A stretch of DNA of 35,922 bases, taken from a virus. The translations under genes and the position numbers were made by a program. This document shows positions 1-35,922 of the stretch, piece after piece (within the stretch, counting starts at the first letter, position 1; each line of letters begins with the position of its first letter). A model generated the notes under the pieces. It did not search any database, was not told the DNA's origin, and saw nothing but the letters and a program-made list of their open reading frames with translations. The stretch spans positions 1 to 35,922 of IMG/VR virus record IMGVR_UViG_3300009034_000126; one strand, written 5' to 3'.

Positions 1-490
1 GATGATGCAGTAACAAAAGGTGGTCAATATATTTATAGAGCTGCTGGAACAGATGTTCCTGTAACAGACGGTGGCACTGGTGCATCAACATTAGCTGATC
101 ATGCCGTTCTTGTAGGATCTGGTACAAGTGCAATTACAACGTTAAGTGTTGGATCGAATGGTCAAGTGTTACTCGGAGCAACTGGCGCAGATCCAGCTTT
201 TGCAACATTGACATCTGCAACTTCAACAATTGTATATACTCCAGGAGCTAGCTCTTTGGATTTGCAAACAGGCTCTATAGTATCCAAGTCGTTCCCAACA
301 GATTCAGGGACTGCAACTCCACAGTTAGGAGTGCTTACTCTTACAGGTGGTACAAACATTAATACATCAGGCTTAGCGGCTGCAGTAACTATCAATCTTG
401 ATAGCTCTCCATCTGTTTCAGGATCATTAACAGCTGGCACTGGAATAAGCGCAACAACTGGAAATATTACTGCAGACGCTGGCGATCTTG
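1..490. repeat. Terminal direct repeat, left copy
   Basis: These 490 bases recur exactly as 35433-35922. The reading frame of the fibre gene continues through the join, because 33780 and the second-copy equivalent of codon 1 are in phase. This indicates either a circular map or a true terminal redundancy. The copy lies inside a repeat-rich fibre gene, so part of the identity might come from assembly of internal repeats, but a 490-base exact match at both contig ends is typical of a closed phage genome. Confidence 0.93.
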
Positions 491-15594: not shown

Positions 15595-16626
15595 ATGAAA
15601 AAAAGCGGGGGCCGAAGCACCCCAACTTCTTATGATAAAGAAGATCATAAGCCTCTCACTCCTGAAAATCAAGTAAAATATTTAAATCTTCACATCCCTG
15701 TTGAAGATCAAATAAAGTATTTAAACTCCAACAGTATTCATCAGTTCCCACGAGATAATTTTGAATATTTCATAAAATGGTTGAATCCTACTGATTTGAA
15801 GGTATTGGAATATATAGTTCGCAAGTCAGTACATTGTCACTACCAATACCCAAAACAAGAAACTATAGCAAAACAAATAAGGCGATCGCGCGAAGAAACT
15901 AACAAGTCTATGCGTAAGCTCGTTAAATATGGTGTTATCAATGCTATACAGCGCTGTAACCATTCAAATATTTACAAACTTTCAGCATATTTTAGTAATT
16001 CAAAAGTAAGAGAACGATGGAGCAAATACATCTATGCATTTAAATATATTGTCGCTATTGCGTCACTTATCATATCTTCTCAAGCCCTTACTACATACCA
16101 AGAAAAGCAGCATAATAAAGAAAAAGCTAAAGTATTAATAGCAACCCTCACCAAAGAATTAAGATTAAGAGATATATATAATAAATCTTCTAGAAACAAC
16201 GAAGAAATGTCTGTTAATGTCAACACAAACCGAGACTTTTCAACTGGAAAAACAGAAGAGCCCGTAAAAACTACCGGGAGAACTACGCCCGAGGAGCGTC
16301 CAAATGACCTCTCTTATCTCAACGACTTTCTCCAGAAGATGATCCCAGAAGACGAACTAAAAGCTATCAAGGAGAAACAGCTCCGTGGCGAGCCTCTCCT
16401 TCCGTCCCGTCAGTCGGACCCGAGAAAACCAACTACACCATTCACACCCAACAAGAAACCTGCAAAAGGGATGGTGTATGATAGCCCTATAGACAAACCG
16501 CGGATCCTTACCGAATCGGATATCCACTTGCTCAAATATGGATCCAGAAGTACAAAAAAAGAGAGACCATGCAATGACAAAGAAAAACCAAAAAATGCGT
16601 GGAGGATCAAACAGTGCCTGCAGTGA
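15595..16626 (+). CDS. Winged-helix protein with a central membrane segment (343 aa)
   Basis: ATG at 15595 follows a weak AAAGAG site. Residues about 64-130 (NPTDLKVLEYIVRKS, YPKQETIAKQIRRSREETNKSMRKLVKYGVINAIQR, IYKLS) read as a winged helix-turn-helix of the type seen in replication initiators and regulators. Residues 146-166 (YAFKYIVAIASLIISSQAL) are a strong membrane helix, followed by a long polar region with a KEK-rich start and a Pro-rich end. A short duplication (QVKYLN / QIKYLN) lies at 26-44. The protein may be a phage replication initiator or regulator tethered to the membrane. Position before RusA and terminase suits a replication role, but I cannot assign it firmly. Confidence 0.7.
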   Translation: MKKSGGRSTPTSYDKEDHKPLTPENQVKYLNLHIPVEDQIKYLNSNSIHQFPRDNFEYFIKWLNPTDLKVLEYIVRKSVHCHYQYPKQETIAKQIRRSREETNKSMRKLVKYGVINAIQRCNHSNIYKLSAYFSNSKVRERWSKYIYAFKYIVAIASLIISSQALTTYQEKQHNKEKAKVLIATLTKELRLRDIYNKSSRNNEEMSVNVNTNRDFSTGKTEEPVKTTGRTTPEERPNDLSYLNDFLQKMIPEDELKAIKEKQLRGEPLLPSRQSDPRKPTTPFTPNKKPAKGMVYDSPIDKPRILTESDIHLLKYGSRSTKKERPCNDKEKPKNAWRIKQCLQ

Positions 16627-22334: not shown

Positions 22335-22696
22335 GATGGCGTGCAGTTCTTTTGCACGCTCTTTCTTTTGTTATTGGAATTACTGCTGGTATTGTTTCAT
22401 CTCATATATTTGCGCCACTTGGCGATCTCGAAGCAGAGATGAAAATATGTCGCCATCCAATAGAAATAGAGGGCTGCGAAGGACAATATCTTTTGGTTGC
22501 CAAGTTTATTAATAGGGACGGGGCATTGCTTAGATATTCGTTTATTGTAACTGAAGAAGATGAGCCTGAAGCAATAGATTGGGCAATACGTAAAAGTAAA
22601 GATGCTTTTGATTTGATATCGATAGTACGAATGCACTATTTTGATGAAGCAATTGCTCAAAATGAAAAACTTATAAAAGAATATGAAAGTCAATGA
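22331..22696 (+). CDS. Membrane-anchored hypothetical protein (121 aa)
   Basis: ATG 22331 overlaps the previous stop. Residues 5-30 (AVLLHALSFVIGITAGIVSSHIFAPL) are a membrane helix or uncleaved signal anchor. The remaining domain has a beta pattern (QYLLVAKFIN, LLRYSFIVTEEDEPEAIDWAIRKS) and a helical end. Two cysteines (ICRHP, EGCEG) may pair outside the cytoplasm. No family is recognised. A membrane protein within the head module is unusual; it may act at the host envelope or in lysis rather than in the capsid. Confidence 0.7.
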   Translation: MRWRAVLLHALSFVIGITAGIVSSHIFAPLGDLEAEMKICRHPIEIEGCEGQYLLVAKFINRDGALLRYSFIVTEEDEPEAIDWAIRKSKDAFDLISIVRMHYFDEAIAQNEKLIKEYESQ

Positions 22697-23174
22697 TAAA
22701 AGAGGTAAAAAGACAGTAGGCTCCGCAAGCTACGATCGCCTCATAAAAGATCCCGAAACAAACGATCCTATTGAACTTCAACGCGAAATGCACAAGGATT
22801 ATGAGGCTAATATACAAGAATGTATAACACGCTGCTCTAAAGATTATGTAGGTGATTTCTATATCGTTGTTACGACAAAAAAAGAACGGCTTATGCCAAA
22901 TGTATTACGTAACTACTTTTTTGGAAGAAAATCTTGCCCTACTCCTGAATATGATCAAGCAGTTTATAAATATCATCGGAAAGATGGCAATATAGAGTTT
23001 TTATGGGTACTTCCATCAAAAGATACTTGTGAAATGATGCGCGATAACGCACTTAAAATTGCGCCAGAAGAACGCGCACTTAGGGATTTTGTTCTGGCTT
23101 TTTATGATAGAACATTATTTACTTTATCGAAAAGGCTTAACGGTGAAAAAGAAGATTCTCCGTTTTTGGCATAA
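22683..23174 (+). CDS. Conserved-looking phage protein of unknown function (163 aa)
   Basis: ATG 22683 lies inside the end of the previous gene (14-base overlap), after AAAAGAAT. The core reads GDFYIVVTTKKERLMPNVLRNYFFGRKSCPTPEYDQAVYKYHRKDGNIEFLWVLPSKDTCEMM, a motif-rich block I associate from memory with proteins located between portal and capsid genes in many podoviruses. The C-terminus is helical (ALRDFVLAFYDRTLFTLSKRL). It is probably a structural or morphogenesis protein; no enzymatic residues can be assigned. Confidence 0.75.
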   Translation: MKVNDKRGKKTVGSASYDRLIKDPETNDPIELQREMHKDYEANIQECITRCSKDYVGDFYIVVTTKKERLMPNVLRNYFFGRKSCPTPEYDQAVYKYHRKDGNIEFLWVLPSKDTCEMMRDNALKIAPEERALRDFVLAFYDRTLFTLSKRLNGEKEDSPFLA

Positions 23175-23204: not shown

Positions 23205-23942
23205 ATGGATGAAAAACAAGTTCAAGAAGAAACCGAAAACCAAGAAACTACATTGCAAGGACCTAACAGCAACCAAAATGAGTCTCAACCTACGCAAGAT
23301 GTTCAGCAAGAAGCCCAAGAAGAATTAAATTATCGTGCTTTACGTGAACTGAAAGAAAAAGCCGAGCGAGAACGCGATGAACTTCGTATAAAATTAGAAC
23401 AAACACAAAAAATACAACAACAGGAACCCGTGCCTCCTCAACCAACAGAAAACCAAGATTTCTATGTAAATCCAGATGACCTTGTTGAGGGAAAACATTT
23501 AAGCGCTGTAAATAAAAAAGTTAAACAACTTGAAGAACAATTACAGGCATACCAACAACAATCAACGGTCAATACTGTGGAAGCAAGACTAAAGGCTCAG
23601 CATCCTGATTTTGATCAAGTTGTATCAAAAGAAAACATAGAGATATTTAGAACAGCTTATCCAGAACTCGCGGCTGCAATTGGCTCATCTTCTGATATTT
23701 ACAGCAAGGGAATGTCCGCCTATACACTCATAAAAAAATTTGGCATTCATCAAGCACAAGCAAATGCCGGTGCTGTTGATCGAGTAAAACAGAATCTATC
23801 GAAGCCAACATCTTCTGCAAGCATTGGCACACAACAAGGAGATAGCCCGCTATCAAAAGCAAACGCATTTGCCGATGGTCTTACTCCAGAATTGAAACAA
23901 AAGCTTTACCGCGAGATGGTGGAGTCATCTAAAAGAAATTGA
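23205..23942 (+). CDS. Capsid scaffolding protein (245 aa)
   Basis: ATG 23205 follows AAGGAAGTACGA. The N-terminal 80 residues are Gln/Glu/Pro-rich and disordered. A coiled coil (REDKEKAERERDELRIKLEQ-like region, about 46-70, and VNKKVKQLEEQLQAYQQQ, about 100-120) follows. Then comes a helical domain with HPDFDQVVSKENIEIFRTAYPELAAAI and a polar C-terminus. Acidic, helical composition and position directly before the major capsid gene are classic for scaffolding proteins that guide procapsid assembly. A terminator follows, separating it from the capsid gene. Confidence 0.82.
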   Translation: MDEKQVQEETENQETTLQGPNSNQNESQPTQDVQQEAQEELNYRALRELKEKAERERDELRIKLEQTQKIQQQEPVPPQPTENQDFYVNPDDLVEGKHLSAVNKKVKQLEEQLQAYQQQSTVNTVEARLKAQHPDFDQVVSKENIEIFRTAYPELAAAIGSSSDIYSKGMSAYTLIKKFGIHQAQANAGAVDRVKQNLSKPTSSASIGTQQGDSPLSKANAFADGLTPELKQKLYREMVESSKRN

Positions 23943-27641: not shown

Positions 27642-28223
27642 GAGGATAGTTAGTGGCGTACATGGCATATGATAATATATACTTCTCATATGAACTATTA
27701 ACACCAGGAGTTGATATGAGAAAAACTATATCGTTATATGACAGAAATCTTTCTTGTGAAGATATAAAGAAAATCAAAAAGAAGATTTTAGCCGGCATAA
27801 GAAAAACTGATTCCGGATGCTGGCTTTATAAAAATTCTACATATGGAGCTTATAGCAAAATGAGATGGAGCGGAGTTTGGTATTCAGCCCATCGAGCTTC
27901 ATATGAGATTTTTAAAGATAGGATTACCAATGGATTATGGGTATGTCATTCTTGCGATACCCCAAAGTGCGTTAATCCAGAACATCTATTTTTAGGAAGC
28001 GCAAAAGATAATATGCGCGATGCCAGAAAGAAAAAACGCACTCGAGCTGGCGAAGATAATCATTTAAGTCGATTTACTGACGAGCAAATTGAACAAATGC
28101 GCCTTCTTAAAAATGAGGGATTCACATATGACAGGCTGCAAAAAATATTCAATTGCTCTATGGCCCACATATACAATGTGGTTAAAGGTTTAATTCGAAA
28201 TAGGAGATAGAAATTGGCGTACA
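27642..28223 (+). mobile_element. HNH endonuclease insertion flanked by a duplicated start region
   Basis: TGGCGTACA occurs at 27654-27662 and again at 28215-28223, on either side of the HNH gene. Each copy is preceded by AGGAGA and an A/T/G spacer, so both ribosome site and start region of the 28214 gene are represented twice. The first copy gives a GTG start at 27653 with a short N-terminal sequence of its own. This looks like insertion of a homing endonuclease at the start of the downstream fibre gene with duplication or restoration of the initiation site. Confidence 0.55.
27716..28210 (+). CDS. HNH homing endonuclease (164 aa)
   Basis: The chosen start ATG 27716 has CAGGAG five bases upstream; an in-frame GTG at 27653 also has a ribosome site and would add 21 residues. 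The HNH_3-type motif is visible: CWLYKN (35-40), AHRASYEIF (58-66), then VCHSCDTPKCVNPEHLFLG (76-94) with the paired His/Cys, Asn87 and His90, and DNMRDARKKKR. A C-terminal helix-turn-helix (FTDEQIEQMRLL, FTYDRLQKIFNCSMAHIYNVVKG, 120-158) would bind the target. Such enzymes nick intron-less or free-standing homing sites in related phages. It interrupts a tail-gene series and is most probably selfish DNA. Confidence 0.9.
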   Translation: MRKTISLYDRNLSCEDIKKIKKKILAGIRKTDSGCWLYKNSTYGAYSKMRWSGVWYSAHRASYEIFKDRITNGLWVCHSCDTPKCVNPEHLFLGSAKDNMRDARKKKRTRAGEDNHLSRFTDEQIEQMRLLKNEGFTYDRLQKIFNCSMAHIYNVVKGLIRNRR

Positions 28224-28844: not shown

Positions 28845-31022
28845 ATGGCACGGGAGCTTGATCGTTTTCTTATTGCTCCATTTAATACAGGTCTTGAACG
28901 CGATTTAAAGCCTTGGCTTATAATGGACGATGCATTTGTAAGATTAAAAAATGCATATGTCTTCCGTGGGCGCATTAAAAAGCGATTCGGCTCTTATTTA
29001 ATGAGGCCAACCACCCCAGTTGCAACCGGTATCGCACAACTTGCTTCCCGTCTTCGAATTAAAGTAGGAACAACAGATGGAGCAGGGAATATAAGCGGCA
29101 CAGCTCCAGGTGCAACCTTTAAAGTTGGTCAGCTATTTTCTATAGGAAGCGAAATATTTACTGTTTCTGTTACTGGAACTCCAGGAGTGATGCTCACGAC
29201 CGGGTCTGCTACAACACACACCTATAACACAACAACTGGTGCCTATGTAATTAATGGTGCCGCAGCCACAACAGATTGCTATTTTTACCCTGCAGAATCT
29301 GTAATGGGCCTTATTTCATATGAAAGTACCTCTATAAACGAAGAATCAGTTTATGCTTTTGATACACAATTTGCTTATTATTACACCAATAATGGATGGG
29401 ATCGATTAGGAACTGGCATCTGGACTGGCGATGACTCAGAGTTCTTCTGGGGTACAAATTATCGCGGCGCAACTTCAGATGTAACTCTATTATTTGTTAC
29501 GAATTTTAAAACAGCTGACGGAATTCAATATTGGAATGGAACAACGTGGGCCACATTGAATCCTGCTATTAATTCAGGCGGCGATACCATAGAAACCGCA
29601 CGAATCATCATTCCATTTAAAGATCGCCTTTTGCTTTTTAATACGGTTGAAAATATAACAGCTGTAGACACATCTTTTGTAAATCGATGTAGGTTTTGTC
29701 AAAATGGAAGCCCTTTACAGGCAGATGCTTGGAGAGAAGATATTGTTGGAAAAGGTGGTTATATCGACGCGCCAACCAAAGAAGCTATTATTACCGTACA
29801 AAACCTCAAAGATAGATTGATTGTTTTCTTTGAGAGAAGCACCTGGGAATTAGTCTATACAGGCAATCAAGTTCTTCCTTTCGTATGGCAGCAAATAAAT
29901 AGTGAATTAGGGGCAGAATCAACATTTTCAATTGTTCCATTCGATAAAATCACAATTGGGGTTGGAAATGTTGGCATACACGCCTGTAATGGCTTAAATG
30001 TAGAACGAATAGATCAAAAAATTCCAAATGAAGTATTTAATATACATAACGCTAATGACGGTATTCTTCGGGTATATGGCATCCGTGATTATTTTACAGA
30101 AATGGTTTATTGGGCATTCCCATCAGATCAACAAGAAGACAAATTCCCAAGACGAGTGCTTATATATAATTATAAAAACAGCTCATGGGCAGAAAATGAT
30201 GACTCAATAACATGTTTTGGATATTTTCAGCCCTCAAGTGATGTTACATGGCAAAACATGGAAGAAGAATGGCAGGAAGTTGAAGCAGAATGGGGAAGTG
30301 GAGTATTTCAGTCTCAATTCGCTCAAATTATTGCTGGAAACCAAGAAGGATTTATTTTTGTCGTTGCCCCAACTGAAACATCAAGAAATGCTCCAGCACT
30401 GCAAATTACAAATATCTCTGTTTCCGCAAGCATTATTACAATAACTTCAGTAGATCATAATCTTGTTGTTGGGGATTATGTTGTTGTTGAAAATGTCCAA
30501 GGAACAACCGGTTTAAATAATAATATTTATCAAGTACAAACCGTTCCAACTGATGATACCTTTACTATTGTGCAATCAGGAGTAACTGGAACCTATACAG
30601 GAGCAGGCACCATAGCGCGTGTAAGCGTTATAGATATCCTCACAAAGCAATATAATTTTTATAATCGCTATGGAGAAAATCTGATAATGCCGATAGTAGA
30701 TTTTCTTGTTGATAACACCCAAAATGGCCAAATTACAATTGATTATTATGCCTCTTCCTCAAACCTATCATTAAGGCAAGCAGGTGTTGACTCGGGGGCA
30801 ATTTTAGGAACAAGTGTTCTTGAGACATCTCCATATGCCGATATGCCACTTGAAAGCACCCAATCTCAATTTTGGCATTCCATTTATCCTCAAGCTGAAG
30901 GCGAAAGCGTCCAACTACGCCTTTATCTTTCTGATGATCAAATGCTTGATTCTGATATTGCATGGAGTGATTTTGAACTTCACGCAATGCTTTTCCGCCC
31001 AAGAAGAATCCGCCGTATATAA
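28845..31022 (+). CDS. Tail nozzle/hub protein, beta-propeller-like (725 aa)
   Basis: ATG 28845 follows TTAGG directly after the previous gene. The N-terminus (ELDRFLIAPFNTGLERDLKPWLIMDDAFVRLKNAYVFRGRIKKRFGS) and the repeating strands with FKDRLLLFNT, LKDRLIVFFERSTWEL and NYKNSSWAEND fit the large beta-rich nozzle or hub proteins of podoviruses (P22 gp10 / T7 gp12 type). An E1-FCCH-like beta domain is inserted at about residues 518-585 (ALQITNISVSASIITITSVDHNLVVGDYVVVENVQG). The conserved C-terminus (LYLSDDQMLDSDIAWSDFELHAMLFRPRRIRRI) is basic. It is cotranscribed with the 28214 gene. Confidence 0.78.
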   Translation: MARELDRFLIAPFNTGLERDLKPWLIMDDAFVRLKNAYVFRGRIKKRFGSYLMRPTTPVATGIAQLASRLRIKVGTTDGAGNISGTAPGATFKVGQLFSIGSEIFTVSVTGTPGVMLTTGSATTHTYNTTTGAYVINGAAATTDCYFYPAESVMGLISYESTSINEESVYAFDTQFAYYYTNNGWDRLGTGIWTGDDSEFFWGTNYRGATSDVTLLFVTNFKTADGIQYWNGTTWATLNPAINSGGDTIETARIIIPFKDRLLLFNTVENITAVDTSFVNRCRFCQNGSPLQADAWREDIVGKGGYIDAPTKEAIITVQNLKDRLIVFFERSTWELVYTGNQVLPFVWQQINSELGAESTFSIVPFDKITIGVGNVGIHACNGLNVERIDQKIPNEVFNIHNANDGILRVYGIRDYFTEMVYWAFPSDQQEDKFPRRVLIYNYKNSSWAENDDSITCFGYFQPSSDVTWQNMEEEWQEVEAEWGSGVFQSQFAQIIAGNQEGFIFVVAPTETSRNAPALQITNISVSASIITITSVDHNLVVGDYVVVENVQGTTGLNNNIYQVQTVPTDDTFTIVQSGVTGTYTGAGTIARVSVIDILTKQYNFYNRYGENLIMPIVDFLVDNTQNGQITIDYYASSSNLSLRQAGVDSGAILGTSVLETSPYADMPLESTQSQFWHSIYPQAEGESVQLRLYLSDDQMLDSDIAWSDFELHAMLFRPRRIRRI

Positions 31023-31055
31023 AACCGTCTGCAAGATATATAATCTTACAGACGG
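31021..31055 (-). terminator. Hairpin terminator serving the minus-strand gene
   Basis: CCGTCTG plus AAGAT pairs with ATCTT plus CAGACGG (31025-31055; one internal mismatch, ATATA loop). On the minus strand it is followed by TTTT, so it can end transcripts from the 31220-31759 gene. On the plus strand it directly follows the nozzle-gene stop and may also protect that mRNA. Confidence 0.7.
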
Positions 31056-31059
31056 AAAA

Positions 31060-31210
31060 AGGAGGTAGTCAACTACCATAGATTTCAATCTATGGCTTGT
31101 AATTCCAGTTTTCGGGTTGCACTTGGCAACACACGGCTTAAAAGCGACGGACTACAATAGGCCAATTGACTGTGGCCCAGAACGTTCACATATAGCAAGC
31201 GTTCATATGA
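31060..31210 (+). ncRNA. Structured RNA candidate, HEARO/omega-RNA-like
   Basis: The region has dense base-pairing: GTAGTC (31065-31070) with GACTAC (31150-31155); CCATAGATT-TC-AATCTATGG (31076-31095); GTTGC-ACTTG-GCAAC (31116-31130); GGCCA with TGGCC (31160-31177). Single-stranded elements include GTCAACTACC, GGCTTGTAA, GGCTTAAAAGCGACGG and a direct repeat CGTTCACATA / CGTTCATATG near 31183-31209. From memory these resemble the HEARO RNA, the guide-RNA scaffold of IsrB/IscB-type nucleases. No IscB, IsrB or TnpB gene is present, so it would be an orphan. It contains no plausible gene. The family link is unverified. Confidence 0.5.
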
Positions 31211-31219
31211 GAAAATATC

Positions 31220-31759
31220 TTATTGTTTAATATATTCAAGAACGATATATGTTGTTGTATAAGCGGCTTTATTATCTCCAGTCGTGACAACAACATTCGT
31301 ATTATCAGCATACACTTTTACATTTTCAGTTAGCGTTGGAGATGAATATGGCAATGGAATATATACAAGGCCGCTTGTATCTGATGCACATCCGTAAATC
31401 CTCGTAAATGTAAAATTAGCATCCGTCGCAATTCCATGAGCTACAGATTTTGTTGTTGCATTAGGAAGCGCCCCGAAATTTATAACTTTTCTAAATACTT
31501 GCCTATAAGTAGGCGTTTGTGCTGTTGTAGAAGATAAACTTGGATTTGGAAAATAAACTTGTCCATTTACAAACTCTTCTTGTACATAATATCCGGCATC
31601 TCTAATATTTAGCGAGTTTGCTATATCGTTTACTGTTTGATAAAGCCGTATAAATAATTCACGAAATTCAGGACTTTTTACATCAACCGTTTTGATATCA
31701 AAAATATCTGTTGTTGGGATAAATGCGCCTGGTCCAATATCAGACGGATAACTAGACAT
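31220..31759 (-). CDS. Virion-type protein on the opposite strand (179 aa)
   Basis: ATG at 31759 follows AAAAAGGAGCTAC on the minus strand. After an N-terminal helical region (SPEFRELFIRLYQTVNDIANSLNIRDAGYYVQEEFVNGQVYF) comes a beta-rich domain: QVFRKVINFGALPNATTKSVAHGI, FTFTRIYGCASD, YIPLPYSSPTLTENVKVYADNTNVVVTTGDNKAAYTTTYIVLEYIKQ. I recall this C-terminal pattern from phage fibre or virion proteins. It is the only late-type gene on the minus strand and has its own terminator, so it is probably a separately acquired, separately regulated gene. No enzymatic motif is seen. Confidence 0.75.
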   Translation of the reverse strand: MSSYPSDIGPGAFIPTTDIFDIKTVDVKSPEFRELFIRLYQTVNDIANSLNIRDAGYYVQEEFVNGQVYFPNPSLSSTTAQTPTYRQVFRKVINFGALPNATTKSVAHGIATDANFTFTRIYGCASDTSGLVYIPLPYSSPTLTENVKVYADNTNVVVTTGDNKAAYTTTYIVLEYIKQ

Positions 31760-33779: not shown

Positions 33780-35922
33780 ATGGCACGAGCAAGATCGGCC
33801 AGGGGTACCCGACTTAAGGAACATGCCATTTGGACAGGCAATGCTGAAATAGAAATTCCAGTCCCCCCAGTAGATTCAACTCGAAATCCAACTGCACGAG
33901 ATAAGGCGCCAATTGGTACAATGTGGATGAATAAAATAACAAACGCTATGTACCAACTAGCATCTATAACTGGTGGTTCTGCTACGTGGGAATTATATGG
34001 AGGAACATTAACTCTTGATACCTTAGCCGGTGATACTGGAACCGCAAATCCAACGTCTAACACTATTACTATTGCTGGTGGAACAAACATTACTACGGCT
34101 GCAGCATCTTCTACTGTAACTGTTAATCTTGATGCTGCTATTTCTGGGATTACATCACTTGATATTGCAGCAGGCGGAAGAATTGGAACTGCAACTGGTG
34201 CCGGAAATACGCTTCTAATTCAAGCATATGATGTAGATGGAACTGCCTATACTACGTTCGCTACATTGACAGCCAATAATACACCTACAATGGATTTGGA
34301 TGATGCCGTAACAAAGGGCGGACAATACATTTACAGAGCCGCGGGAACAGATGTTCCTGTAACAGACGGTGGAACCGGTGCAAGCACATTGACAGATCAT
34401 GGAGTATTGGTTGGAGCTGGAACAAGCGCTATTACAGCTCTGACAGTTGGAACTGATGGCCAAGTCCTTCTTGGGTCTAGTGCAGCAGATCCAGTATTTG
34501 CAACACTTACTTCTTCTGGTGCCACAATCGCATTTACACCTGGAGCTGGCACATTAAATCTTGAAACCGGTTCAACAGTTGCTGCTTCTTTCACAACAAA
34601 TTCAGGGACTGCAACACCATCTTCAGGGGTGCTTGCTATTGATGGTAGTTCAAACATTAATACATCAGGTTCAGGTTCTACAGTTCTAATAAATTTAGAT
34701 ACTATAATTTCAGGGATTACATCACTTGATATTGTAAATGGCGGAAGAATAGGAACATCAACAGGAGCCGGAAATACTCTTCTTTTGCAGGCTTATGATG
34801 TTGATGGAGCTGCCTATACCACATTCGCTACTCTTACTGCAAACAACACGCCTACAATGGATTTAGATGATGCAGTAACAAAAGGTGGTCAATATATTTA
34901 TAGAGCTGCTGGAACAGATGTTCCTGTAACAGACGGTGGCACTGGGGCATCTACATTAACTGATCATGGTGTTTTAGTTGGAGCTGGAACTTCTGCTATT
35001 ACAGCTCTGACAGTTGGAACTGATGGCCAAGTCCTTCTTGGTTCTAGTGCAGCAGATCCAGTATTTGCAACACTTACTTCTTCTGGTGCCACAATCGCAT
35101 TTACACCTGGAGCTGGCACATTAAATCTTGAAACCGGTTCAACAGTTGCTGCTTCTTTCACAACAAATTCAGGGACTGCAACACCATCTTCAGGGGTGCT
35201 TGCTATTGATGGTGGTTCAAATATTGATACATCAGGTTCAGGTGCTACTGTTACAATAAATTTAGATACTGTAGTTTCAGGGGTGGTATCACTTGATATT
35301 GTACCAGGCGGAAGAATTGGAACATCAACTGGCGCAGGCAATACATTGCTTCTACAAGCTTATGATGTTGATGGGGCTGCCTATACCACATTCGCTACTC
35401 TAACGGCCAACAATACGCCTACAATGGATTTGGATGATGCAGTAACAAAAGGTGGTCAATATATTTATAGAGCTGCTGGAACAGATGTTCCTGTAACAGA
35501 CGGTGGCACTGGTGCATCAACATTAGCTGATCATGCCGTTCTTGTAGGATCTGGTACAAGTGCAATTACAACGTTAAGTGTTGGATCGAATGGTCAAGTG
35601 TTACTCGGAGCAACTGGCGCAGATCCAGCTTTTGCAACATTGACATCTGCAACTTCAACAATTGTATATACTCCAGGAGCTAGCTCTTTGGATTTGCAAA
35701 CAGGCTCTATAGTATCCAAGTCGTTCCCAACAGATTCAGGGACTGCAACTCCACAGTTAGGAGTGCTTACTCTTACAGGTGGTACAAACATTAATACATC
35801 AGGCTTAGCGGCTGCAGTAACTATCAATCTTGATAGCTCTCCATCTGTTTCAGGATCATTAACAGCTGGCACTGGAATAAGCGCAACAACTGGAAATATT
35901 ACTGCAGACGCTGGCGATCTTG
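33780..35922 (+). CDS. Long tail fibre, N-terminal part (continues at base 1; 886 aa in total)
   Basis: ATG 33780 follows AAGGAGAATAT. The frame stays open to the contig end and, through the 490-base terminal repeat, continues at 1 and stops at 1008. Residues 1-80 include NPTARDKAPIGTMWMNKITNAMYQLASITGGSATWELYGG, a version of the adaptor motif in the 8019, 9358 and 10722 fibres. Then come three tandem copies of a 189-residue repeat (period 567 bp) with TSLDIAAGGRIGT, QAYDVDG, TPTMDLDDAVTKGGQYIYRAAGTDVPVTDGGTGASTLTDHGVLVG and LTSSGATIAFTPGAGTLNLETGSTVAASF. It is the largest fibre of the phage and probably the main receptor-binding shaft. Confidence 0.87.
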   Translation, partial: MARARSARGTRLKEHAIWTGNAEIEIPVPPVDSTRNPTARDKAPIGTMWMNKITNAMYQLASITGGSATWELYGGTLTLDTLAGDTGTANPTSNTITIAGGTNITTAAASSTVTVNLDAAISGITSLDIAAGGRIGTATGAGNTLLIQAYDVDGTAYTTFATLTANNTPTMDLDDAVTKGGQYIYRAAGTDVPVTDGGTGASTLTDHGVLVGAGTSAITALTVGTDGQVLLGSSAADPVFATLTSSGATIAFTPGAGTLNLETGSTVAASFTTNSGTATPSSGVLAIDGSSNINTSGSGSTVLINLDTIISGITSLDIVNGGRIGTSTGAGNTLLLQAYDVDGAAYTTFATLTANNTPTMDLDDAVTKGGQYIYRAAGTDVPVTDGGTGASTLTDHGVLVGAGTSAITALTVGTDGQVLLGSSAADPVFATLTSSGATIAFTPGAGTLNLETGSTVAASFTTNSGTATPSSGVLAIDGGSNIDTSGSGATVTINLDTVVSGVVSLDIVPGGRIGTSTGAGNTLLLQAYDVDGAAYTTFATLTANNTPTMDLDDAVTKGGQYIYRAAGTDVPVTDGGTGASTLADHAVLVGSGTSAITTLSVGSNGQVLLGATGADPAFATLTSATSTIVYTPGASSLDLQTGSIVSKSFPTDSGTATPQLGVLTLTGGTNINTSGLAAAVTINLDSSPSVSGSLTAGTGISATTGNITADAGDL
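34151..35851 (+). repeat. Three tandem 567-bp in-frame repeats in the long fibre gene
   Basis: Matching landmarks (TACATCACTTGATATTG and equivalents) start at 34151, 34718 and 35285, an exact 567-bp period (189 codons). Copies 1 and 2 share blocks with no visible difference, for example about 34500-34640 and 35067-35207. Copy 3 is more diverged at its ends. The 1706 fibre gene holds a single related unit (about 2250-2820). Recent duplication or gene conversion is likely, and the copy number could be misassembled. Confidence 0.85.
35433..35922. repeat. Terminal direct repeat, right copy
   Basis: Exact second copy of 1-490; see the left copy. Removing it gives a 35,432-bp unit genome with an unbroken fibre gene across the join. 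Confidence 0.93.

What the first reader, a model, noticed from the sequence alone, without database searches (positions are those of the whole stretch)
31060..31210. Orphan HEARO/omega-RNA-like structured RNA in a phage
A 150-base gene-free region holds a long-range stem, three clear hairpins, and motifs (GTCAACTACC, GGCTTGT, TTAAAAGCGACGG, paired CGTTCA repeats) that resemble, from memory, the HEARO RNA now known as the guide scaffold of IsrB/IscB nucleases. No such nuclease gene is in the genome. An orphan guide scaffold could work in trans with a host or co-infecting nuclease, act as an inhibitor (decoy), or be the remnant of a degraded transposon.
Basis: partly seen in the sequence, partly recalled or inferred. 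Interest (0 to 1): 0.78.

Follow-up and report, generated by a model that had tools for sequence, protein, structure and literature searches.

The report
Miniature transposon carrying TnpB guide RNA
A 147-base stretch in a bacteriophage genome is a miniature jumping element, left over from an IS200/IS605-type transposon, that still carries the guide-RNA scaffold of the DNA-cutting enzyme TnpB but not the enzyme; it resembles the IscB/HEARO guide only in one shared end module, which runs in the opposite direction.

Summary
All named motifs are present and the region folds far better than shuffles. It is not HEARO: cmscan finds none even at E<=10, though it finds HEARO in IscB-linked loci. The motif pair GTCAACTACC..GGCTTGTAA is shared by two guide-RNA families read in opposite directions: the 5' end of HEARO, and the complement of the 3' end of TnpB right-end RNAs (reRNA/omegaRNA). 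A TnpB-type covariance model built without the window finds it on the MINUS strand (31179-31068, 68 bits), as strongly as loci with tnpB and far above HEARO loci (24-42 bits). It has the stems and guide-proximal pseudoknot described for ISDra2 TnpB RNA, and overlaps a decayed tnpB tail. A related phage carries an 85%-identical copy elsewhere in its genome; 37 of 37 other relatives' loci lack it. So 31068 to about 31209-31214 is a tnpB-less miniature IS200/IS605 element (PATE type). Neither phage record has tnpB, Y1 tnpA or iscB. Compensatory changes between the two copies hint that the fold was kept after tnpB was lost; use in trans by a foreign TnpB is possible but untested.

The parts
31068..31214 (-). 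The miniature element: homology with the copy in the related phage begins exactly at 31068 and ends at 31214; the true left end lies at about 31209-31214
   Evidence: 85% identity to L200, which sits at another place in a colinear relative
31068..31179 (-). TnpB-type right-end guide RNA scaffold (reRNA/omegaRNA), 3' end at 31068
   Evidence: model R1 built without the window: 68.2 bits, E 1.4e-11
31160..31177 (-). Stem 1 hairpin GGCC-loop-GGCC with GTCAA in its loop
   Evidence: all 5 family pairs have compensatory changes, 95.8% of cells paired
31166..31170 (-). Pseudoknot strand a (GTCAA on minus), pairs with 31072-31068 (TTGAC, next to the guide)
   Evidence: pairs in 99.2% of cells but does not vary, partly because the search pattern fixed the 3' side; matches the ISDra2 TnpB pseudoknot (passages)
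31099..31155 (-). Stem 2 (31149-31155 with 31099-31106) enclosing a variable arm (the stem 3 place)
   Evidence: 3 of 7 pairs with compensatory changes, 93.5% of cells paired
31075..31096 (-). Stem 4 hairpin (31096-31089 with 31082-31075), also the palindrome near the right end
   Evidence: 5 of 8 pairs with compensatory changes
31090..31206 (-). Decayed tnpB 3' coding tail (frame ..WATVNWPIVVRRF*AVCCQVQPENWNYKP*), two internal stops in the window
   Evidence: same frame is open in L097; the ATVNxPIV-like segment matches, by eye, C-termini of TnpB in L095, L100, L126
31180..31204 (.).
   Evidence: folds in both copies; of 5 pairs, 3 changed on both sides and kept, 1 unchanged, 1 broken in the relative
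31052..31067 (-). Would-be 16-nt guide (flank 3' of the reRNA on the minus strand)
   Evidence: inference from ISDra2, where the last ~16 nt of reRNA come from flanking DNA (passages)
31025..31055 (-). Intrinsic terminator of the minus-strand 179-aa gene; not part of the element
   Evidence: 13-pair stem with T tail; L160 has a comparable hairpin at the same place without the RNA (read by eye)

Best explanation
It is a ~147-bp tnpB-less miniature of an IS200/IS605-family element (a PATE): the left end joined by an internal deletion to the last ~100 bases of tnpB plus the right end. On the minus strand it encodes the TnpB right-end guide RNA. Shown: the fold and covariation, the TnpB-type model match, the decayed tnpB tail, a second copy at another place in a related phage, absence from 37 other relatives' loci, and no tnpB/tnpA/iscB in either record. 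Inferred: it moves as single-stranded DNA through its two near-terminal palindromes, using a Y1 TnpA supplied by the host or another element. If transcribed (for instance as the 3' UTR of the 179-aa gene, ending at the terminator 31055-31025) it would give a reRNA whose 3' guide is the flank 31067-31052. With a matching TnpB in the same cell this RNP would be aimed at the empty site, meaning sibling DNA without the insertion, and would favour copying the element back.
For: R1 model made without window and L097 (20 sequences): window 68.2 bits, E 1.4e-11; 0 of 37 other relatives' loci match; TnpB-linked loci not used in the model score 44-68 bits and the seven Rfam-confirmed HEARO loci 24-42. 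Covariation over 24 sequences: 94.5% of cells paired vs 74.0% shuffled, 13 of 25 pairs with changes on both sides, score 0.511 vs 0.119. Strand: 55 G-U cells vs 5 A-C cells, so the fold is better on the minus strand (31 vs 5 without one invariant column). Of 51 TnpB-type RNA hits, 32 have tnpB sequence just upstream on the same strand (21 of them >=350 aa aligned, 3 being the query proteins themselves; 2 only 15 aa), 13 have none in >=1.3 kb, 6 are too short to tell. Same element at a different locus in a colinear relative. Two tnpB-tail stops in the window. No TnpB, Y1 TnpA or IscB.
Against: Only two copies of this subfamily were found, so mobility rests on two sites. The left end is fixed only to about 5 bases, and the TAM is not identified (TTTCT borders both copies). 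The pattern that collected the family came from the window, so 19 bases of similarity are by selection (HEARO loci share them too). No autonomous parent with the same tail was found. No expression data. The guide gave one hit in viral contigs, with no sign of an empty site.
Confidence: 0.88

Rival explanations
1. Orphan HEARO (IscB/IsrB guide RNA) on the plus strand, guide at the 5' end.
For: First ~35 bases share the HEARO 5' module; the seven HEARO hits start at that motif.
Against: No HEARO match at gathering or E<=10 or in the genome search, which found HEARO in 3 of the 5 records given, not in G000 or G001. The rest of the RNA matches the TnpB type. tnpB tail remnant in the minus frame. 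G-U pattern favours the minus strand.
Confidence: 0.03
2. Dead fossil (a sub-case of the best explanation on the question of present activity): the element landed once, its tnpB was deleted, and nothing acts on it now.
For: Two stops in the tnpB tail; no tnpB or tnpA in the phage; absent from other relatives.
Against: Fold fully kept; between the two copies 7 of 8 changed pairs stay standard, 5 by double changes, against 0.35 double changes expected for random positions (0 of 20000 trials). With the changed positions fixed and letters random this weakens to P 0.20 for stem 1 and 0.09 for the left-end hairpin.
Confidence: 0.4
3. A phage RNA of its own function (3' UTR element or regulator of the 179-aa gene) that only looks like a transposon end.
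For: It lies in the 3' UTR of the 179-aa gene, just before its terminator.
Against: Absent from 37 of 37 other relatives' loci. The second copy is beside unrelated genes and antisense to them. The family is linked to tnpB.
Confidence: 0.04

Closest known systems
TnpB right-end RNA (reRNA/omegaRNA) of IS200/IS605 elements, e.g. ISDra2 (PMC8612924, PMC10097598; passages seen)
   Same: Overlap with the 3' end of tnpB, stem 1 with pseudoknot loop, stem 2, variable arm, stem 4, 3' end TTGAC next to the flank-derived guide
   Different: No tnpB in cis; the coding tail has two stops; ~112-nt scaffold; no TAM or activity known
PATEs (palindrome-associated transposable elements) of Haloquadratum (PMC3119063; passages seen)
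   Same: Short, no terminal inverted repeats, palindromes near both ends, no target duplication, related to IS605-type ends; there too some elements keep only C-terminal remnants of the transposase genes
   Different: Here in a tailed phage, and the kept remnant carries a complete guide-RNA fold; only two copies found
HEARO / IscB omegaRNA (Rfam RF02033; PMC9755519, passages seen)
   Same: End module GTCAACTACC-hairpin-GGCTTGTAA
   Different: Module read in the opposite direction; remaining structure, associated gene and guide side differ; RF02033 does not match
TldR with phage-encoded guide RNAs (PMC13418256; search listing and start of abstract only)
   Same: Phage-borne TnpB-type guide logic
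   Different: There the phage carries the TnpB-like protein; here none is found

Membership tests
HEARO (RF02033) | Match to the Rfam covariance model above 83 bits | tested here: not met
   positives in 7 of 17 loci scanned
HEARO (RF02033) | IscB/IsrB gene downstream | tested here: not met
   RRXRR in 0 of 2 phage records, positive in the L117 and L146 records
TnpB reRNA | Sequence and fold of the family | tested here: met
   68.2 bits with a model made without it; pair counts
TnpB reRNA | Pseudoknot between the stem-1 loop and the bases next to the guide | tested here: met
   GTCAA/TTGAC complementary in the window; nearly invariant, so no covariation support
TnpB reRNA | Overlap with the 3' end of tnpB | tested here: met
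   as a decayed tail only, two stops
TnpB reRNA | Bound by a TnpB and guides cleavage | not testable with these tools
   needs experiment; no TnpB in cis
IS200/IS605 miniature (PATE) | Too short for a transposase; no terminal inverted repeats; no target duplication | tested here: met
   147 bp; ends and flanks compared by eye
IS200/IS605 miniature (PATE) | Palindromes near both ends | tested here: met
   right: stem 4; left: GAACG/CGTTC, weaker in the relative
IS200/IS605 miniature (PATE) | Found at different places / empty sites | tested here: met
   0 of 37 other relatives' loci
IS200/IS605 miniature (PATE) | Moved by a Y1 TnpA in trans, insertion 3' of a fixed short target | tested here: inconclusive
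   no TnpA in 2 of 2 phage records; TTTCT borders the left end in both copies, two sites only

The most novel reading that the evidence does not exclude
A guide-only selfish element of phages: it has discarded the nuclease, keeps a working TnpB guide scaffold under selection, and borrows TnpB (and TnpA) from the host or a co-infecting element to cut element-free sibling phage genomes at the empty site, spreading like a homing endonuclease that uses someone else's enzyme. The two copies share the same deletion junction, so the compensatory changes in stem 1, which TnpA is not expected to need, would have arisen after tnpB was lost.
Probability: 0.15. Interest if true: 0.72.

Novelty: new member of a known kind. 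Interest (0 to 1): 0.4.

Why it matters
It corrects a likely mis-filing: one end module is shared by HEARO and, antisense, by TnpB RNAs, so motif memory alone assigns the wrong nuclease, strand and guide. It also shows that viral contigs carry TnpB guide scaffolds without TnpB (13 of 45 decidable TnpB-type RNA hits had no tnpB upstream). If such RNAs are used in trans, guide and nuclease would be evolving as separate genetic units.

Tried and rejected
Exact 16-mer GGCTTAAAAGCGACGG in viral and genome contigs: 10 and 60 stretches, all in unrelated contexts by eye; chance. This used the one genome-contig scan. BLASTN of the region against phages and plasmids: no match. GTAATTCCAGTTTTCGGG: L097 and an unrelated L197. 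Further subfamily patterns: only L097, plus L106 (a different orphan). Guide 18-mer: one hit in L204, with no TTTCT before it and no similar surroundings by eye; taken as chance. An autonomous parent was sought by the tail peptide in plasmids: none. Coding constraint on the tail: substitutions between the two copies fall at codon positions 11/6/7, so there is no third-position excess. Literature: (open-access library only) listed no report of a tnpB-less reRNA element in a phage; I do not claim there is none.

Counts to read with care: one search reported 88 stretches but delivered 80 loci with 83 matches, all of which I listed. The 51 hits are those I judged TnpB-type; lower-scoring and HEARO-like hits (among them L091, L094, L125, L141 and all seven HEARO loci) were left out, and near-identical contigs (L087/L088/L135 and others) are counted separately. 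Alignment A2 left out duplicates and the long-armed L111, L115, L150.

Full report
OBSERVATION. The 206 nt around them fold better than every one of 200 shuffles on either strand. The stretch lies between two convergent genes: a 725-aa gene ending at 31022 (PHROG virion structural protein) and a 179-aa gene on the minus strand, 31220-31759. A minus-strand terminator lies at 31055-31025. A comparable hairpin is seen by eye at the same place in relative L160, which lacks the RNA, so it belongs to the phage and not to the element.

NOT HEARO. cmscan gives no hit at gathering scores and no HEARO among the three chance hits at E<=10. As positive control, the same library finds HEARO in 7 of 17 loci, 16 of which I chose because they share GTCAACTACC..GGCTTGTAA and one of which is L097 itself. 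Each of those hits starts exactly at that motif. L107, L117 and L146 have an IscB-like ORF downstream on the same strand and L076 a shorter one (by eye); L146's is RRXRR plus HNH in Pfam, and L117's record also has RRXRR.

TNPB TYPE. The gapped motif, scanned over viral contigs, gave 83 matches in 80 delivered loci. Many have, on the opposite strand and ending at the motif, a ~380-aa ORF. Two that I scanned are TnpB (OrfB_IS605 plus Cas12f1-like_TNB; L089 and L126). Read on that strand, the RNA is: stem 1 with GTCAA in its loop, stem 2, a variable arm, stem 4, then GGTAGTTGAC and the flank. This is the architecture reported for the ISDra2 TnpB omegaRNA, in which bases just before the guide pair with bases in the stem-1 loop to form a pseudoknot, and a late stem closes on a UUUA loop (PMC10097598, passages). 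In 24 sequences 94.5% of cells are paired (74.0% when shuffled) and 13 of 25 pairs have changes on both sides; slid versions fall to 24-49%. The 5 pseudoknot pairs hardly vary, and their 3' side was fixed by my search pattern. G-U cells outnumber A-C cells 55 to 5 (31 to 5 without one invariant column), which favours this strand.

INDEPENDENT TEST. Model R1 was built from 20 sequences without the window or L097. It finds the window at 31068-31179 minus with 68.2 bits, E 1.4e-11. TnpB-linked loci outside the model score 44-68 bits, and the seven Rfam-confirmed HEARO loci 24-42 bits. The 19 pattern bases are shared by all of these, so the gap comes from the rest of the RNA. Of 51 TnpB-type hits, 32 have tnpB sequence just upstream on the same strand (two of these only 15 aa), 13 have none within at least 1.3 kb, and 6 are too short to tell.

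A MOBILE MINIATURE. L097, in a 19.3-kb record colinear with window 10.7-24.7 kb at roughly 64-82% DNA identity, holds an 85%-identical copy. It sits between the homologues of window genes 22683-23174 and 23205-23942, where the window has a ~30-base spacer. No match was found in 37 other relatives' loci, nor in the whole records behind 23 of them (in which G000, G001 and the L106 record were the 3 positives of 26). The flanks next to the right end differ between the copies, as expected for flank-derived guides. There are no terminal inverted repeats or target duplications by eye, and palindromes lie near both ends. The minus frame 31206-31090 is a tnpB tail with two stops; the relative's frame is open. 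Neither record has TnpB (PF01385; PF07282 tested in the window record only), Y1 TnpA or RRXRR. The window has a 490-base exact terminal repeat, so it is probably complete; the relative may be a fragment. This meets the published description of PATEs (PMC3119063, passages).

MECHANISM. Inferred: TnpA in trans moves the element. If transcribed, the reRNA would carry the guide 31067-31052 and, with a TnpB in trans, would target the empty site, as proposed for ISDra2 (PMC8612924, passages). The 24 substitutions between the copies include 5 double changes that keep pairs: 2 in stem 1 and 3 in the left-end hairpin. Random placement gives 0.35 on average and never 5 in 20000 trials. With the changed positions held and only the letters randomised, P is 0.20 for stem 1 and 0.09 for the left end, so this is a hint, not proof. 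One left-end pair is broken in the relative. The left-end structure was taken from the window itself, which favours it. Because both copies share one deletion junction, these changes probably arose without tnpB in cis.

VERDICT. A well-supported TnpB-type reRNA in a tnpB-less IS200/IS605 miniature. The kind is known; the phage setting and the intact scaffold make it moderately interesting. Whether it is a fossil or is used in trans is open.

Noticed in passing
L072-L151: The same end module (GTCAACTACC-hairpin-GGCTTGTAA) begins HEARO RNAs in sense and ends TnpB reRNAs in antisense, as if IscB and TnpB guides both grew from the same transposon end but are transcribed in opposite directions.
   Followed up: partly
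L106 (record G025, 93,790 bases): One viral contig holds both an orphan TnpB-type RNA (81171-81271, 74.9 bits) and a HEARO RNA (87425-87655, 108 bits).
   Followed up: no
L130 (record G027, 185,437 bases): Six HEARO RNAs in one viral contig.
   Followed up: no
L113: Four near-identical copies of the motif in one 7.4-kb contig, of neither clear type (R1 32-38 bits).
   Followed up: no
window 27653-28210: Free-standing HNH endonuclease gene between two structural genes; looks like a homing endonuclease.
   Followed up: no
window 1-490 and 35433-35922: Exact 490-base terminal direct repeat; many diverged repeats (67-83%) among the repetitive genes at 0-12 kb and 34-35.8 kb.
   Followed up: no
L200 (reverse complement ~16,560-16,620): In the relative, the gene before the element reads into it and stops inside it, so the insertion seems to have replaced that gene's last codons.
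   Followed up: no
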